From an uncultured Opitutaceae bacterium (GTDB lineage: Bacteria > Verrucomicrobiota > Verrucomicrobiia > Opitutales > Opitutaceae), in NCBI GenBank assembly GCA_903929355.1, contig CAIYUN010000027.1, positions 1 through 49,024 of the forward strand: DNA of 49,024 bases, read 5' to 3'. Shown here one piece after another: positions 1-48,833 of this stretch. The translations under genes and the position numbers were made by a program. The notes under the pieces were generated by a model. The model searched no databases. It was not told the origin of the DNA and saw only the letters and a program-made list of their open reading frames with translations. The stretch's first letter is position 1; the number at the start of each line of letters is the position of its first letter.

Positions 1-138
1 ACCACTTAAATAATTCAGAGTGACGGCAAGCATCGCCCCCGGTGAGTGACATCAAAACTTTCCCACCTTAAGATGTATTTCTCTGTGACCTCAGGTCTTG
101 CCTCTGTGGCCTCTGTGACCAACTGCTGAATCTAGGTT
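1..138 (-). repeat. CACAGAG-type dispersed repeat, copy a (cut by window edge)
   Basis: This segment is the reverse complement of 37627-37764. Positions 1-60 match 37705-37764 exactly, and the rest differs at only a few bases near 61-70. On the minus strand it reads as one arm built of CACAGAG words followed by the variable interior. The other arm would lie before the window start. The remaining spacer, 139-338, shows nothing I can name. Confidence 0.85.
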
Positions 139-7376: not shown

Positions 7377-7553
7377 CAGCCGTTGGTCACGGAGACCACT
7401 GAGATTAAACCCGAGGTCACAGAGCAGAAATACATCAAACGGCGGGAAGGTTTGGGCGTCACCCACCAGCTGCGTTGGTTGCAGCCACCCGGGATCGTTT
7501 AGTGGTTTACTCGGTGAACGCTGTGTCTGTGCGCTGTGTTCTCGGTGTAACCC
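7377..7553 (+). repeat. CACAGAG-type dispersed inverted repeat, copy b
   Basis: The left arm (GTTGGTCACGGAGACCACTG, then GAGGTCACAGAG) and the right arm (GGTTTACTCGGTGAACGCTG, then GTGTTCTCGGTGTAACCC) are imperfect reverse complements of about 50 bases. The interior contains GCGTCACCCACC, as in other copies. The element occupies most of the spacer between the GH28 and DUF4861 genes. Confidence 0.75.
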
Positions 7554-9431: not shown

Positions 9432-9450
9432 TCCGGTCGGGTGGATCCGG

Positions 9451-9632
9451 CCGTTGGTCACGGCACTCAGCGATACAACCCAGGCTCCTCCGGCTTCCCT
9501 GGGAGACATGCGGTTTTGAAGGAGGAAGCCATGAGGCCAGGAAAGGAGAAACACCGCATTCCTGATCGGTTCCTGGTTTCCTGGCTTCCCCCTTGATCCT
9601 CCGGGTCCGCTCTCTGTGCGCTCGGGGTCAAC
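9451..9632 (+). repeat. CACAGAG-type dispersed repeat, degraded copy c
   Basis: It begins CCGTTGGTCACGG like copies b and e and ends CTCTCTGTGCGCTCGGGGTC near the usual right-arm position. The interior is replaced by an unrelated segment with its own partial inverted symmetry (GCCAGGAAAGG near 9536, CCTGGTTTCCTGGCTTCC near 9570). Confidence 0.5.
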
Positions 9633-9648
9633 CTGCGGAGGTCTTTAG

Positions 9649-9763
9649 TGGTGACGCATTTTGCCGTCTTTGGGTAGGGACGCCACTCCGTGGCGTCCGC
9701 GGACGGCTCGGAGAGCCGTCCCTTGTTGCTACCATTGTGGTGGCATTTCAAAATGCGTCACCA
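9649..9763 (+). mobile_element. MITE-like mini-element, copy 1, with 15-bp terminal inverted repeats
   Basis: Perfect termini TGGTGACGCATTTTG and CAAAATGCGTCACCA enclose two perfect hairpins: GGACGCCAC-TCC-GTGGCGTCC and GGACGGCTC-GGA-GAGCCGTCC. The last base abuts the stop codon of the dehydrogenase gene (9764). It is similar to 15708-15816 and shares the core hairpin plan with 44496-44594. No clear target duplication is seen. It could also work as a transcription terminator. Confidence 0.75.
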
Positions 9764-14036: not shown

Positions 14037-14064
14037 GGGTAAAAATCGCATGGATACGGCATCG

Positions 14065-14244
14065 GGTCACAGAGACCACGGAGATAAACCGAGTTCACAG
14101 CGAAAAGCATCGGATGGACAGGAGATTTTGTTGTCGCGCCTCCCATGGAGGGTCAGGTCCGTAAGCCGAAGGTTTACGTGATTCACTCTCCGTGAACGCC
14201 TGGTTTGCCATCCGTGTTTATCCGAGTTCATCCGTGGTTAAAAA
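14065..14244 (+). repeat. CACAGAG-type dispersed repeat, hybrid copy d
   Basis: The left arm is GGGTCACAGAGACCACGGAG, then GAGTTCACAG. The right side is mixed: CACTCTCCGTGAACGCC, followed by ATCCGTG words (ATCCGTGTTTATCCGAG, then GTGGTTAAAAA). The two word families meet in one spacer, which suggests repeated insertion or recombination between elements. Confidence 0.6.
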
Positions 14245-15707: not shown

Positions 15708-15816
15708 TGGTGACGCATTTTGTCGTCTTTGGGTAGGGACGCCACTCCGTGGCGTCCGCGATGGCTCGGAGCGCCGCCCCTGCCGTTGAGGTGGCATTTC
15801 AAAATGCATCATCACC
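15708..15816 (+). mobile_element. MITE-like mini-element, copy 2
   Basis: The left end TGGTGACGCATTTTG is identical to copy 1. The right end CAAAATGCATCATCACCA is a slightly lengthened complement. The core GTCTTTGGGTAGGGACGCC and its hairpin partner GTGGCGTCC are kept, and the second hairpin is decayed. It lies between the lyase start and the stop of the next gene upstream on the same strand. Confidence 0.7.
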
Positions 15817-17226: not shown

Positions 17227-17745
17227 TGAATCCGTGTTCATTCGTGTCCATCCGTGGTTAAAAAACTCCGTCCATTCCGTTCCTGATTCCCTGATTTCCA
17301 AATAAAATTCAAATCTGGTGCTTTCCAAATCTCCGTGTCCTCGGCTCGACTCTCTGTGCGCTCTGTGTCCCAATTCCGATTCCGTCCCGACCTGTCCTCC
17401 GAAGCCTCGGCGAAGGAGGATCCGTGGTTAAATACTCCGTCCATTCCGTTCCTGATTTCCTGATTTCCAAATAAAATTCCAATCTGGTGCTTTCTAAATT
17501 CCGTGTGGCCAATTTCTGGATCCGTATCCGTGTTCATCCGTGTCCATCCGTGGTTAAAAAACTCCGTCCCCTCCGTTCCTGATTTCCTGATTTCCAAATA
17601 AAATTCAAACTGGTGCTTTCCAAATTCTTTGAGGCCAATTTCTGGATCCGTATCCGTGTTTATCCGTGTTCATCCGTGTCCATCCGTGGTTAAAATACTC
17701 CGTCCCCTCCGTTCCTGATTTCCTGATTTCCAAATAAAATCCAAT
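17227..17745 (-). repeat. Four-copy tandem array of a 127-170 bp unit
   Basis: Each unit holds one to five ATCCGTG words, GTGGTTAAA, CTCCGTCC and TTCCTGATTTCCTGATTTCC, then CAAATAAAAT and CTGGTGCTTTCCAAAT. The GTGGTTAA landmarks begin at about 17250, 17420, 17547 and 17682. The first interval is lengthened by an insertion with CTCTGTGCGCTCTGTG words. The array fills the 643-base spacer 3' of mnmA. No gene is supported inside it. Confidence 0.85.
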
Positions 17746-17789
17746 CTGGATCTTGCCGAATTCTAGATTGTTTCCCCTGGGGAAGAGCA

Positions 17790-18938: not shown

Positions 18939-19010
18939 CCTCGCAACGACGCCATCCGGCGTCCGTTTGTCAACCTCTCCTCCCCTCCACTCGTTCTCGT
19001 TCTCCCTCCC

Positions 19011-19132
19011 CTCAACCCCTCAACCCCTCAACCCCTCAACCCCTCAACCCCTCAACGCTTCAACGCTTCAACCCTTCAACCCTTCAACGCTTCAACCCCT
19101 CAACCCTTCAACCCTTCAACCCCTCAACCCCC
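19011..19132. repeat. Period-9 tandem repeat (CTCAACCCC/TTCAACGC)
   Basis: There are about thirteen consecutive 9-bp units, switching between CTCAACCCC, TTCAACGCT and TTCAACCCT. The run ends one base before the stop codon of the phosphoesterase gene and fills most of the gap to the mnmA start. A shorter run of the same unit lies at 20633-20661, on the other side of the phosphoesterase gene. Confidence 0.9.
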
Positions 19133-19133
19133 C

Positions 19134-20510
19134 TCATTTCGCCGGCGCCTCCCCCGGCTTCTGCTCAAAATCAAATGCGCTCATCATGTCGCTGGCCTTG
19201 GCGTCGCGCTCGGTGAGCGGGGCCAGGCCGAAGCGCTTTTCGATGAACGCCAGGATGGATGTCGTGTCCATCGGGGTGTGATCCACCAAGCCCCGTCGCG
19301 CGTAGGGCGAGATGACCAGGGTCGGGACGCGCGCACCCGGTCCCCATCGGTCCACGACCGGCGGGGCCACGTGGTCCCAATAGCCGCCGTTGTCGTCATA
19401 GGTGATGAAAATGGCGCAGTCTGGCCAAGCCGCGCTGGCCTGGATTTGTGCGACGAGGTCCGCCGCGTGGGCTTCGCCGGTGTTGAGGTCGCTGTAGCCG
19501 GGGTGTTCGTCCTCGGGACCGAGCGGCTTGTAAAAGGAGACCGCCGGGAGCGTGCCCGCTTTCAACCCGGCGACGAAGTCCTTGGCGTCCTTGAGGTGCT
19601 CCTTGGCCCGGTCCGTGCCGGCGGCATACAGTTTGTAATAGGCGAAAGGCTGATGATTCGGCTGGAACAGTCGGGCCGGATGGCCCGCGACGGCATCATC
19701 CCAACCTGCGGCATACCACGCCCAGGTGAGGTTTTTTTCACTGAGCCGCTCCCCGATCGTGGGCAGGGTCAGGGCGGGCAGCAGATGCGCGTTGTCCAAC
19801 CGGCTCGGATGAGGGCCCACCGAGCTGTAGGCGGTGCCGATCACGTAGCCGTCGGGGCTGACGACATTGTCCCGGAGCAATCCGGTTGTGGGGTCTGGCT
19901 TGGCGACGTAATCCGCCGGCGGATTGGGCCATTGGGGTGTCGCCGCGCTGATCAGCCAGATATGATTGAGAAAGGACGCGCCAAAGGCCGCGTGGAAGAA
20001 ATTGTCCGCCAGGGTGAATTGCCGGGCATACTTGTAGAGGCCGAGCTTGGTCGTGTCGTAGTAGCCCATCGCGAGCCCGGCGGCGTCGCTCCACGCGGCA
20101 AATTTGTCCATCCTGCCGCCGTCAATCTGCAGTTGCTGCCGGTAAAAGGCGTGGATGATGTCGCTCGTTTTTTGGTCCGCCGGGACATATTTTTCGATTG
20201 GGAAGGGCGCGACGGGCAGGTCGGACGGGAAGCGGGGATCCGGCCGGCGGTTGCCGGTGTTGATGGGCTGGGGGAGGGTCGTATACGCCGTGCCGTCCTT
20301 GGCCACCTGGGGTGTGGCCGATTTGGCGGCGGCCAGACCGTTGGCCCCCGGAAACGTTCCGTAGAGATTGTCGAAAGTGTGGTTCTCCAGGTAAATCACA
20401 ATAATATGATTGATCGGGACCGACGCCGGAGTCTGGGCTTGGGCTGCCATCGGCAGCCCACCCAGGGCGGCGATCAGGGACGCCCACAGAAAAAATGGCG
20501 CGTGGTTCAT
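19134..20510 (-). CDS. Secreted phosphoesterase (phospholipase C / acid phosphatase AcpA family)
   Basis: This 458-residue protein starts at 20510, where [18 protein letters not shown]...AQA gives a signal peptide. The phosphoesterase-family opening follows at once: [19 protein letters not shown] (ENHTFDN at 42-48; Thr45 is the expected nucleophile and Glu/Asn metal ligands). Further on come [38 protein letters not shown] and [16 protein letters not shown], the second metal-binding block, and a final [20 protein letters not shown]. It would hydrolyse phosphomonoesters or phospholipid head groups outside the cytoplasm; the substrate is not determined. It is divergent from the GH13 gene and bracketed by period-9 tandem repeats. 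Confidence 0.9.
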
Positions 20511-20602: not shown

Positions 20603-20632
20603 GGGGCGGTGGACAGATCTGTCCACCGCCCC
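20603..20632. repeat. 30-bp perfect palindrome in a divergent promoter region
   Basis: The arms are GGGGCGGTGGACAGA and TCTGTCCACCGCCCC, with no loop. It lies between the divergent starts at 20510 and 20738. It could be an operator, but its junction with a tandem repeat suggests repeat-derived DNA instead. Confidence 0.75.
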
Positions 20633-20661
20633 CAACCCCTCAACCCCTCAACCCTTCAACT
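20633..20661. repeat. Short run of the period-9 CTCAACCCC repeat
   Basis: About three units of CTCAACCCC/TTCAAC follow directly after the 30-bp palindrome and match the longer array at 19011-19132. Confidence 0.8.
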
Positions 20662-20737
20662 TCCCCTTCCCCCCTTCCCCCTCCTCCCCCTTTCTGCTTG
20701 TGCGCGGACGGCCCGGCAGATGCTTTGTAATCCCCTC

Positions 20738-31879: not shown

Positions 31880-31985
31880 TTTTCGCCGACGCCGATCAGG
31901 CCGAGGCTGGATCGACTCCATTAGCGAAGATTAGTGGTTAAAAAACTCCGTGGTTTGCTCCGTGACCTCGGTGTCCGCCTTGGAG
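31880..31985 (+). repeat. 106-bp direct repeat, copy 1
   Basis: It is identical to 32024-32129 except for one base (GATCAGG against GATTAGG). It includes ATTAGTGGTTAAAAAACTCC and the CACAGAG-family right-arm motif GGTTTGCTCCGTGACCTC. Confidence 0.9.
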
Positions 31986-32023
31986 TTCTGGGTAAACCTT
32001 CTGCGGTTTTAACTTTAGCTGCC

Positions 32024-32129
32024 TTTTCGCCGACGCCGATTAGGCCGAGGCTGGATCGACTCCATTAGCGAAGATTAGTGGTTAAAAAACTCCGTGGTTT
32101 GCTCCGTGACCTCGGTGTCCGCCTTGGAG
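32024..32129 (+). repeat. 106-bp direct repeat, copy 2
   Basis: This is the second copy of 31880-31985, 144 bases downstream. It is followed by GCTGCGGCAGCC...ACCTCGCCGCAGG hairpin-type sequence like that at 3779-3798. Nothing resembling a gene occurs between 31562 and 32228. Confidence 0.9.
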
Positions 32130-37541: not shown

Positions 37542-37607
37542 GTAACCACTAATGCACAATAATCTGCACTAATCCTATCCTGAGAATCCGTGTTCATCCG
37601 TGGTTCC
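37542..37607. repeat. Word-repeat hairpin H1 (ACTAAT / ATCCGTG arms)
   Basis: The left arm TAACCACTAATGCACAATAA (continuing TCTGCACTAATCC) faces the right arm GAATCCGTGTTCATCCGTGG, continuing TTCC, across a TATCCTGA turn. The arms pair imperfectly. It sits in the 450-base spacer 5' of the Fe-S subunit gene and is followed by a CACAGAG element (37635-37813). No gene is supported in this spacer. Confidence 0.65.
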
Positions 37608-37634
37608 AACTTCGTTTTCTAGGATTAACCTAGA

Positions 37635-37813
37635 TTCAGCAGTTGGTCACAGAGGCCACAGAGGCAAGACCTGAGGTCACAGAGAAATACATCGGAAGGT
37701 GAGGAAGTTTTGATGTCACTCACCGGGGGCGATGCTTGCCGTCACTCTGAATTATTTAAGTGGTTTGCTCCGTGAACTCTATGGCTGGGCTCTGTGTTCT
37801 CTGTGCAACCCTT
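37635..37813 (+). repeat. CACAGAG-type dispersed inverted repeat, best-preserved copy e
   Basis: The left arm at 37635-37690 (GTTGGTCACAGAGGCCACAG, then GAGGTCACAGAG) and the right arm at 37761-37813 (GGTTTGCTCCGTGAACTC, then CTCTGTGTTCTCTGTGCAAC) are reverse complements over about 50 positions with mismatches. The roughly 70-base interior is GTCACTCACCGGGGGCGATG-like. The left arm and interior recur inverted at 1-138. Confidence 0.85.
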
Positions 37814-37833
37814 ATGCGCTTTTTAGGATTAAG

Positions 37834-38470: not shown

Positions 38471-38549
38471 TTTAACCACTTATGCACACTCATCTACACT
38501 GATCCGATCCTCAGAATCAGTGTTCATCAGTGAACATCAGTGGTTCAAA
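38471..38549. repeat. Word-repeat hairpin H2 (ATCAGTG arms)
   Basis: The left arm TTTAACCACTTATGCACACT (then CATCTACACTGAT) and the right arm GAATCAGTGTTCATCAGTG (then AACATCAGTGGTTCAAA) are near complements around CCGATCCTCA. The words here are ATCAGTG, where H3 has ATTAGTG and H1 has ATCCGTG. The element lies between the DUF5069 start and the HupE stop. Confidence 0.8.
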
Positions 38550-39861: not shown

Positions 39862-39938
39862 TTTAACCACTAATGCACACTAATCTGCACTAATCCGAGC
39901 CTCAGAATTAGTGTCCATTAGTGTCCATTAGTGGTTTC
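39862..39938. repeat. Word-repeat hairpin H3 (ATTAGTG arms)
   Basis: The left arm TTTAACCACTAATGCACACT (then AATCTGCACTAATCC) pairs with the right arm GAATTAGTGTCCATTAGTG (then TCCATTAGTGGTTTCAA) around CGAGCCTCA. It is the cleanest of the three, located between the HupE start and the GH38 stop. Confidence 0.85.
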
Positions 39939-44495: not shown

Positions 44496-44594
44496 TGGTG
44501 GGTCAGTTTCATTTTGGCCTCTGCGGGTAGGGGCGCCTCTCCGAGGCGTCCGCGGAGGGCCCGGAGATCCATCCCCACCAAACTGATCCTCCCC
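44496..44594 (+). mobile_element. MITE-like mini-element, copy 3 (diverged)
   Basis: The ends GGTGGGTCAGTTT and AAACTGATCCTCC are near inverted repeats of each other but differ from those of copies 1 and 2. The core GGGTAGGGGCGCCTC-TCC-GAGGCGTCC keeps the hairpin plan with paired base changes. It lies close to the 3' end of the RNase R gene. Confidence 0.6.
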
Positions 44595-48623: not shown

Positions 48624-48654
48624 AATAAAGGGCTGAAGGGCTGAACCTAATTTC

Positions 48655-48833
48655 GGCAATTGTTCACAAGGCCACAGAGATAAAAGCCGAGTTCACCGAG
48701 CAGCATTGGACCGACGGCAGATTCTTAGTCACCCACCGGGTGGGATGGCCTTGCCTCGGGTTCGAATGCCCAAGTGGTTTGCTCCGTGACCTCAATGTCC
48801 GCTCTCTGTGCGCTTGTATGTTCAACCCGATGG
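48655..48833 (+). repeat. CACAGAG-type dispersed inverted repeat, copy f
   Basis: The left arm ATTGTTCACAAGGCCACAG (then GAGTTCACCGAGCAG) and the right arm GTGGTTTGCTCCGTGACC (then GCTCTCTGTGCGCTTG) are imperfect complements. The interior has AGTCACCCACCGGGTGGG. It lies 3' of glgA, and no gene is supported from 48624 to the window end. Confidence 0.75.

What the first reader, a model, noticed from the sequence alone, without database searches (positions are those of the whole stretch)
37635..37813. Family of ~180-bp intergenic elements with CACAGAG/CTCTGTG word-built complementary arms
At least six copies or remnants lie in this window (1-138, 7377-7553, 9451-9632, 14065-14244, 37635-37813, 48655-48833). 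Each has about 50-base arms made of loosely repeated 7-mer words, and the right arm is the reverse complement of the left. The roughly 70-base interior is more variable but keeps a GTCACCCACCGGG-like core. Copies differ in arm sequence, yet each element's own arms still match. That suggests selection on the paired structure, or a copying mechanism that rewrites both arms together. I see no transposase, so this could be a REP-like element mobilised in trans or a structured RNA.
Basis: partly seen in the sequence, partly recalled or inferred. Interest (0 to 1): 0.7.

Follow-up and report, generated by a model that had tools for sequence, protein, structure and literature searches.

The report
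Jumping DNA hairpin with borrowed ends
The repeats are short non-autonomous mobile elements whose outer ends match a known transposon family and whose inner hairpin resembles repeat arms that, in related bacteria, flank a little-studied nuclease-like gene and share one short "word" on both sides.

Summary
In detail: six copies in the window (five strong, one weak) and 113 matching places in the 3.8-Mb genome (a relative of Opitutaceae MAGs), 45 full length. The element is about 199 bp, with terminal inverted repeats (CCTAGATTCAGCAG / CCTAAAAAGCGCAG) and 5-bp NTNAN target duplications, like IS1380-family insertion sequences of relatives. It is an IS1380-type MITE; no IS1380 transposase is in this assembly. 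Within the family a copy's own arms match hardly better than swapped arms.

The inner arms point further. The CACRGAG word grammar also forms hairpins without IS1380 ends in relatives. Word-built inverted arms flank GxxExxY genes (PD-(D/E)XK superfamily; 53 of 69 loci, shifted controls 1.2%) and 23S_rRNA_IVP genes (20 of 28, controls 2 of 168). Words differ between GxxExxY elements, yet both arms share the word (46 of 54, 7.5 expected), and its last base follows the protein tree (2 changes, 14.3 shuffled). The gatA-gatB gap is empty, hairpin-bearing or gene-bearing in different genomes. Most likely the MITE captured such a hairpin. How word-armed elements move, and whether GxxExxY acts on the words, is untested.

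The parts
37629..37827 (+). Complete MITE copy: left TIR CCTAGATTCAGCAGTTG, word arms, right TIR (reverse complement CCTAAAAAGCGCAT in this copy, CCTAAAAAGCGCAG in most of the 30 aligned)
   Evidence: Alignment of 30 genome copies with flanks, profile 182.7 bits
37624..37628 (.). Left copy of the 5-bp target-site duplication ATTAA
37828..37832 (.). Right copy of the 5-bp target-site duplication ATTAA
37648..37684 (+). Left word arm: CACAGAG words, layout W-NN-W-(degenerate word)-NN-W
37768..37805 (+). Right word arm (CTCYGTG-type words), complementary to the left arm
1..136 (-). MITE copy cut by the contig end (the window is the whole contig C27)
7369..7567 (+). Full-length but diverged MITE copy; no clear target duplication
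9443..9647 (+). Very degraded remnant, weak profile match (16.5 bits, E 1.7e-4); a CCAGGAA-type stretch lies inside it (seen by eye)
   Evidence: not listed by the genome-wide search at E <= 0.01
14051..14219 (+). MITE remnant; its right end runs into an ATCCGTG-word repeat (seen by eye)
48646..48828 (+). MITE copy with left TIR (CCTAATTTCGGCAATTG) and degraded right end
31946..32011 (+). Right-end fragment beside and partly within a doubled stretch

Best explanation
[quoted passage not shown] An IS1380-family DDE transposase acting in trans cuts at the CCTARA...GCAG ends and inserts the element at NTNAN sites, leaving a 5-bp duplication. Its inside does not look like IS1380 sequence. It is a hairpin of CACRGAG words of the kind that flanks GxxExxY (PD-(D/E)XK) genes in the same bacteria; the closest arms found are those of GxxExxY elements between gatA and gatB. 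Shown by sequence: the ends, duplications, copy number, the shared word grammar and the IS1380 elements of relatives. Inferred: that an IS1380 transposase moved it (no enzyme is in the assembly), and that the hairpin was captured from a GxxExxY-type element. That arms match within a copy follows mainly from a fixed set of words, not from compensatory change.
For: Ends and duplications: 9 of 27 copies with both flanks have an exact 5-bp duplication at a fixed boundary, against 0-1 at boundaries shifted by 1-3 and a permuted mean of 1.0 (maximum 7 in 10,000); NTNAN composition. L009 and L019 are also exact once a 1-nt length difference at the right end is allowed (read). Partners: IS1380 (NF033539) matches in 64 of 189 relatives at E <= 0.001, in 19 over the curated cut-off. 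Seven of 27 IS1380 loci examined gave a complete element with CC-starting inverted ends and an exact 5-bp duplication: CTAAG, CTGAG, TTGAT, TAATA, ATTAG, ATTAA, TTCAG, six of seven NTNAN. In 21 loci of the closest transposases, 35 of the 39 ends examined agree with a MITE end in 13 or more of 18 bases; of the 14 with both such ends, 6 have an exact duplication (L090, which is the same element as L044, L093, L095, L096, L099, L104) and three are cut by a contig end; the L108 end equals the MITE right end over 14 of 14 bases. L044 even keeps the two unlike ends (CCTAGATTCCGCAG and CCTAAAATGCGCAG). Fragments of a relative of that transposase, with stop codons, lie in two genomes of the same genus. 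ISEcp1, recalled here as an IS1380-family member, has IRL CCTAGATTCTACGT (PMC7864471, passages); IS1247, IS1380 family, has a 5-bp repeat (PMC3281130, passages). Inner layer: four-word CACRGAG arms in 29 of 120 genomes of the family, with 0 hits of the reversed control pattern; of 75 GxxExxY elements the MITE left arm scores best against L268 of its own genome (24, next 22), and the four best summed scores are all gatA-gatB elements.
Against: No IS1380 transposase, whole or broken, was found in this 96%-complete, 91-contig assembly, nor in G028, which has related copies. The two MITE ends match each other only partly. The capture of the hairpin is inferred from arm similarity; a 7-mer word grammar could be reached convergently, the second-best left arm (L380, 22) is of a more distant genome and its neighbourhood was not checked, and no intermediate (a hairpin with one IS1380 end) was identified or systematically sought.
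Confidence: 0.86

Rival explanations
1. The element is an IS1380 MITE whose inner words are the IS's own subterminal transposase-binding sites, so there is only one layer.
For: Many transposases bind subterminal repeats (general knowledge). The words lie just inside the TIRs.
Against: IS1380 elements of the matching clade show no CACRGAG words in the 30 bases printed at each end (deeper subterminal sequence was not scanned). Similar word arms occur as hairpins without CCTA ends and around GxxExxY genes.
Confidence: 0.08
2. REP-like palindrome mobilised by a RAYT (Y1) transposase.
For: Four Y1_Tnp genes are in the genome.
Against: The element has TIRs and a 5-bp target duplication, which single-strand Y1 transposition does not leave (general knowledge). 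No copy and no run of words lies in the flanks held of the four Y1 genes; one isolated word at one of them.
Confidence: 0.03
3. A conserved structured RNA (regulatory hairpin) kept by selection on pairing.
For: 96.5% of cells form standard pairs and the covariation score exceeds all 500 shuffles; slightly more own than swapped pairs.
Against: Covariation term -0.54 kcal/mol, 5 of 42 pairs with a double change, no own-arm advantage in energy, no Rfam match in the window. Copies behave as insertions with target duplications.
Confidence: 0.04
4. For the wider set of word-armed elements: left and right words agree because quasi-palindrome correction or template switching copies one arm onto the other.
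For: 46 of 54 elements share the consensus word in both arms.
Against: Spacers between words agree across arms less than permuted pairs (0.17 against 0.35; 0.02% of 5000 permutations lay below; 25 hairpins, some of them orthologous). Arm copying would make spacers agree. Word type follows the nuclease tree, which arm copying does not predict.
Confidence: 0.1

Closest known systems
IS1380-family insertion sequences (ISEcp1, IS1247 and relatives in this order such as L044)
   Same: CCTA-type terminal repeats, 5-bp duplication, mostly NTNAN target in the relatives examined
   Different: The MITE has no transposase gene, is 199 bp, and carries a word hairpin not seen at the ends of those elements
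Prokaryotic MITEs (for example MITEPye1, IS1182-type, PMC11578231, passages)
   Same: Small, no gene, TIRs and direct repeats, intergenic, able to fold
   Different: IS1380-type ends. In the passages of the four papers that I opened of the 16 that hold both IS1380 and MITE no IS1380-derived MITE is described; a MITE review (PMC10969869) does not name IS1380 in its main text. The other 12 were not opened
BrickBuilt MITE of Porphyromonas gingivalis (PMC4596501, abstract)
   Same: A MITE whose inside is built of short repeated units
   Different: 23-nt head-to-tail units; the abstract describes no complementary word arms
23S rRNA intervening sequences with an S23/IVP gene (Coxiella IVS, PMC4990558, abstract start and passages)
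   Same: Small gene between complementary arms, called selfish, mobility only hypothesised
   Different: That one interrupts rRNA and has one nearly continuous 28-bp stem; here sites between protein genes and repeated words, and the MITE has no gene
GxxExxY protein (TIGR04256; Pfam PDDEXK_3, PF13366)
   Same: Its genes carry word arms of the same kind as the MITE interior
   Different: The MITE contains no GxxExxY gene; that the protein acts on the words is not shown

Membership tests
MITE | Short (here about 199 bp), no transposase gene, many copies | tested here: met
   113 places, 45 full length
MITE | Terminal inverted repeats | tested here: met
   CCTAGATTCAGCAG / CCTAAAAAGCGCAG, imperfect
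MITE | Target-site duplication of constant length | tested here: met
   5 bp, 9 of 27 exact against 0-1 at shifted boundaries
IS1380-derived element | Ends like those of IS1380 elements of related hosts | tested here: met
IS1380-derived element | Cognate transposase in the same genome | tested here: not met
   None in G000; fragments in two same-genus genomes. Not strictly defining: a trans-mobilised element can outlive its source, and the assembly is incomplete
IS1380-derived element | Transposition in trans by an IS1380 transposase | not testable with these tools
   Needs a bench assay
REP/RAYT | REP copies flanking the Y1 transposase gene | tested here: not met
   Four Y1 genes, no copies of this element and no word runs in the flanks held
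Word-armed GxxExxY element (inner layer) | Inverted arms of repeated CRCNRAK words with the same word in both arms | tested here: met
Word-armed GxxExxY element (inner layer) | GxxExxY gene between the arms | tested here: not met
   No gene of that size fits in the 199-bp element; it would be a gene-less derivative, so it is not filed as a full member
Structured RNA family | Compensatory changes beyond background | tested here: inconclusive
   few double changes and no energy advantage, small excess in other scores
Structured RNA family | Match to an Rfam family | tested here: not met
   0 matches in the window at gathering scores

The most novel reading that the evidence does not exclude
Word-built hairpins are the arms of a cross-phylum superfamily of small selfish elements. 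Full members carry a GxxExxY (PD-(D/E)XK) or S23/IVP gene between inverted arrays of a short word; each element uses one word, the word is coupled to the nuclease lineage, and gene-less hairpins are its non-autonomous offspring. The nuclease reads the words and drives spread. The window's MITE is a double parasite: such a hairpin that gained IS1380 ends and then multiplied by IS1380 transposition.
Probability: 0.55. Interest if true: 0.88.

Novelty: new variant of a known kind. Interest (0 to 1): 0.72.

Why it matters
Repeats of the CACAGAG and ATCCGTG type lie between genes in this window and in a good part of its relatives, and no source was found for them in the papers searched. Here the 199-bp family gets a concrete mover (IS1380-type ends), and its inside is tied to arms that surround GxxExxY genes, a nuclease-superfamily protein found in 40 of 57 related genomes and named in only 2 papers of the library searched. 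If words and nuclease truly act together, it would be a new kind of small mobile element with a readable word-to-protein correspondence, testable with purified protein and synthetic arms. The gatA-gatB gap gives a natural experiment with empty, hairpin and gene-bearing forms.

Tried and rejected
Rejected or weakened: (1) RAYT/REP: Y1 genes exist but have no copies or word runs beside them. (2) Strong RNA covariation within the family. (3) Arm-copying to explain matching arms: spacers disagree more than chance. (4) A search of 84,980 species genomes for the exact left end with words gave 0 hits; the window's own genome may be left out there and the pattern was strict (G028 copies differ by a base or more), so this says only that the exact form is not common. 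(5) Literature: word strings (3 papers, listing only, none opened; two are eukaryotic, one is on Bacteroides fragilis), GxxExxY (2 papers, both opened at the passage, neither about flanking repeats), PDDEXK_3 (none), S23/IVP terms (opened PMC4990558 and PMC11270868 at passages; PMC3936711 and PMC8700078 not opened), IS1380 with MITE (16 papers, 4 opened at passages), ISEcp1/MITE terms (opened PMC10969869 passages and PMC4596501 abstract), Verrucomicrobia repeats (listing only). The library is open-access PMC only, so a statement that something is unpublished cannot be made. (6) Structure prediction of GxxExxY was not attempted, since its rules name loci of other tools than those that gave these proteins; no solved relative was found by sequence (best E 0.75).

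Rows dropped and weak points: one search leaves out 3 of 30 truncated copies (L008, L011, L014). A1 uses 23 of 30 loci; the same three and L017, L024, L026, L030 were left out, the latter as diverged at the ends; 8 rows of A1 start one or two bases early and 10 end short by one to four bases, partly because of coordinates that I set by hand. One search counts 70 loci, L261 and L276 being the same place, so 53 of 69 distinct. Windows of 220 bp were used and the boundary was not fitted; some matches of 18 or more are not word arrays (for example L395). L386 was dropped, L413 and L435. In one search two genomes (G036, G037) gave no gatA end, leaving 65 of 67. The 25 hairpins come from 7 genomes and from a capped list; two of them (L213, L220) have a GxxExxY-type frame in the loop. 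One search uses 75 of 95 loci (score 18 or more and a readable protein), searches use 58 and 54 of those, with clear words only; arms were picked as the best inverted match, which favours agreement; the permutation uses arms picked the same way, and the tree test does not rest on arm matching, but clustering on a tree is also made by near-copies. Results against the wider reading: 4 of 8 plasmid GxxExxY loci from other phyla scored 12 or less (Sphingomonas, Persicobacter, Treponema, Fusobacteria), Prevotella scored 17, and the high score of Gemmatirosa comes from hairpins and not clearly from arms around the gene; 0 matches in 50,697 phage records; no target duplication was established for word-armed elements; 9 of the 24 gatA-gatB gaps of 68-227 bp scored under 13, and no control was run for that lower cut; the window hairpin at 37543-37602 has CACTAAT words on the left and ATCCGTG (CACGGAT) words on the right, so arms do not always share a word.

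Full report
Observation. The window is the whole contig C27 of a 3.80-Mb, 91-contig assembly. G059, of the same family, has a contig of the same length as an Opitutaceae MAG contig whose locus L090 encodes the same transposase as L044, so the family is taken to be Opitutaceae. A profile from 23 copies (A1; R1) recovers all six reported places, five strongly and 9443-9647 weakly. Genome-wide there are 132 rows, 113 distinct places, 45 full length; 28 keep only the left part and 7 only the right part.

Anatomy. Aligning 30 copies with flanks shows abrupt boundaries. The element begins CCTAGATTCAGCAGTTGGTCACAGAG and ends CTCTGTGTAACCCTTCTGCGCTTTTTAGG. The outer 14 bases form an imperfect inverted repeat, CCTAGATTCAGCAG and CCTAAAAAGCGCAG. 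Five bases on both sides are duplicated: 9 of 27 exact, permuted mean 1.0 with maximum 7, and 0-1 at shifted boundaries; L009 and L019 are exact after a 1-nt length difference. Position 2 is T in 22 of 27 and position 4 is A in 22-23 of 27, so the target is NTNAN. The finding's copy has ATTAA on both sides.

Who moves it. These ends are like ISEcp1, whose IRL is CCTAGATTCTACGT (PMC7864471, passages; that ISEcp1 is IS1380-family is recalled). IS1380 transposase genes (NF033539) match in 64 of 189 relatives, 19 of them over the curated cut-off. Among 27 such loci, 7 gave complete elements with CC-starting inverted ends and an exact 5-bp duplication, six of the seven NTNAN. In 21 loci of the closest transposases, 35 of 39 ends examined agree with a MITE end in 13 or more of 18 bases (ends that are no match score 7-9); of 14 with both such ends 6 have exact duplications, one of them (L090) the same element as L044, and 3 are cut by contig ends. 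The L108 end equals the MITE right end over 14 bases. The own genome has no such gene; fragments with stop codons are in two genomes of the genus. Related copies (74-81% identity, 8 matches) are in G028, a different genus, while the five same-genus genomes searched give one short match in all. I conclude: IS1380-type MITE, moved in trans, source lost or not assembled.

Do arms co-vary in the family? Not appreciably. Own arms against swapped arms: 95.4% against 94.1% standard pairs (p 5e-5), 88.6% against 87.8% Watson-Crick (p 0.03), duplex energy -39.29 against -39.34 (p 0.52). RNAalifold gives -0.54 kcal/mol for covariation, with 5 of 42 pairs doubly changed. On the 30 arm pairs 3 are doubly changed, while the covariation score and the percentage paired exceed all shuffles, which ancestry alone can do. 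Any left arm pairs with nearly any right arm because both are made of the same words.

The inner layer. Some relatives have similar arms without IS1380 ends. The pattern CACRGAGNNCACRGAGN{3,9}CACRGAGNNCACRGAG is in 29 of 120 genomes of the family, with no hit of the backward control pattern. In 25 hairpins from seven genomes with both arms exact, the loop runs from 15 to 382 nt. The variable R positions and mid spacers agree between arms no better than permuted (0.67 against 0.69; 0.75 against 0.76), and the 2-nt spacers agree less (0.17 against 0.35 +/- 0.05). The two largest loops (L213, L220) hold a GxxExxY-type frame, and so does a third place with such arms, G035:C99.

GxxExxY genes and words. 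GxxExxY (TIGR04256) is in 40 of 57 relatives, 8 genes in this genome. Flanks of 220 bp on either side have an inverted match of 18 or more in 54 of 70 loci (53 of 69 distinct), against 1.2% of 419 shifted windows and 4.8% of 2000 cross-locus pairs. Phylum-wide, 21 of 24 further loci against 0 of 124 controls. On plasmids of other phyla, Bacteroides finegoldii and Bernardetia have clear arms; Sphingomonas, Persicobacter, Treponema and Fusobacteria do not, Prevotella is borderline and Gemmatirosa unclear. Words mostly fit CRCNRAK: CACAGAG, CACGGAG, CGCAAAG, CACTAAT, CGCGAAT, CACGGAT and others. The consensus word is the same in both arms in 46 of 54 elements; permuted mean 7.5, maximum 16 in 10,000. 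The last base of the word (G or T) agrees between arms in 54 of 54 and needs 2 changes on the protein tree of 58 rows, shuffled mean 14.3, 0 of 500 as low. Protein identity and arm similarity correlate (rho 0.31; 0.25 for pairs under 60% identity; 0.12, p 0.016, under 50%). Coupling by descent as one unit and coupling by recognition cannot be told apart by this.

A second gene. 23S_rRNA_IVP genes (PF05635) are likewise flanked: 20 of 28 at 18 or more, controls 2 of 168, with words of another style such as GAGTCAG. Coxiella's IVS with an S23 gene is described as selfish, with complementary ends, its mobility only hypothesised (PMC4990558, abstract start and passages).

One site, many states. 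In 65 genomes with both gene ends found, the gatA-gatB gap is 2-51 bp in 23, holds a GxxExxY gene in 16 (arms of the CACRGAG type), an IVP gene in 2, and is 68-227 bp in 24, of which 15 have an inverted match of 13 or more with differing words (no control for that cut). One of the 24 (G053) seems to keep only the two ends of the GxxExxY frame. Within the window's genus, G000 and G002 have the gene and G001 has 7 bp. This shows gain or loss at one site; it does not show how the elements move. In 48 loci whose two neighbours share a strand, the GxxExxY gene points the same way in 36 (neighbours taken crudely as the longest open frame).

Link back to the MITE. Of 75 GxxExxY elements, the MITE left arm is most like that of L268, the gatA-gatB element of the same genome (24; next 22), sharing the degenerate third word (ACCnGAG); the four best summed scores (39-52) are all gatA-gatB elements, median 17. 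This favours a hairpin derived from such an element and later given IS1380 ends; the step itself was not seen.

Verdict. The finding is a real, recently mobile MITE of a known kind with a new make-up. The stronger surprise is the set of word-armed elements to which its arms belong. I rate the MITE reading as near certain, the origin of its inside as likely, and an active role of the GxxExxY protein as an open and testable idea.

Noticed in passing
window 38473-38545 and 39864-39937: Short hairpins built of CACTGAT-type and CACTAAT words (for example AACCACTAATGCACACTAAT ... ATTAGTGTCCATTAGTGGTT). The GxxExxY element L269 of the same genome uses CACTAAT words.
   Followed up: partly
window 37543-37602: A similar hairpin with unlike arms: CACTAAT-type words on the left and ATCCGTG (CACGGAT) words on the right, beside the MITE of the finding.
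   Followed up: no
window 17229-17764 and 14205-14240: ATCCGTGTTCATCCGTG arrays, several direct copies; CACGGAT is the word of some GxxExxY elements in relatives, for example L303 in the same genus.
   Followed up: partly
window 9657-9722, 15716-15781, 44510-44575: A third repeat (CATTTTG...GGGTAGGGACGCC...), two copies with GGTGACGCATTTTG / CAAAATGCGTCACC-like ends, perhaps another MITE.
   Followed up: no
window 31880-32129: A 106-bp stretch doubled at 99% identity, 144 bp start to start, overlapping a right-end MITE fragment.
   Followed up: no
window 18984-19152 and 20620-20692: Tandem 8-bp CCCCTCAA/CCCTTCAA repeats.
   Followed up: no
L210 (G033:C141:8830-9757): A CACGGATG-word hairpin nested in the loop of a CACRGAG hairpin, as if one had inserted in the other.
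   Followed up: no
CACRGAG hairpins L203-L227: Spacers between words disagree across the two arms more than chance (0.17 against 0.35), as if long perfect palindromes were avoided.
   Followed up: partly
contig starts of C6, C26, C27, C33, C55, C57, C60: Seven contigs of the assembly begin inside a copy of the element, so the repeat breaks the assembly.
   Followed up: no
L226 and L227: A CACRGAG hairpin in what looks like the same site in two genera, each ending a few bases before the same ATGTCTTCCTCTGC, so some hairpins may be old.
   Followed up: no
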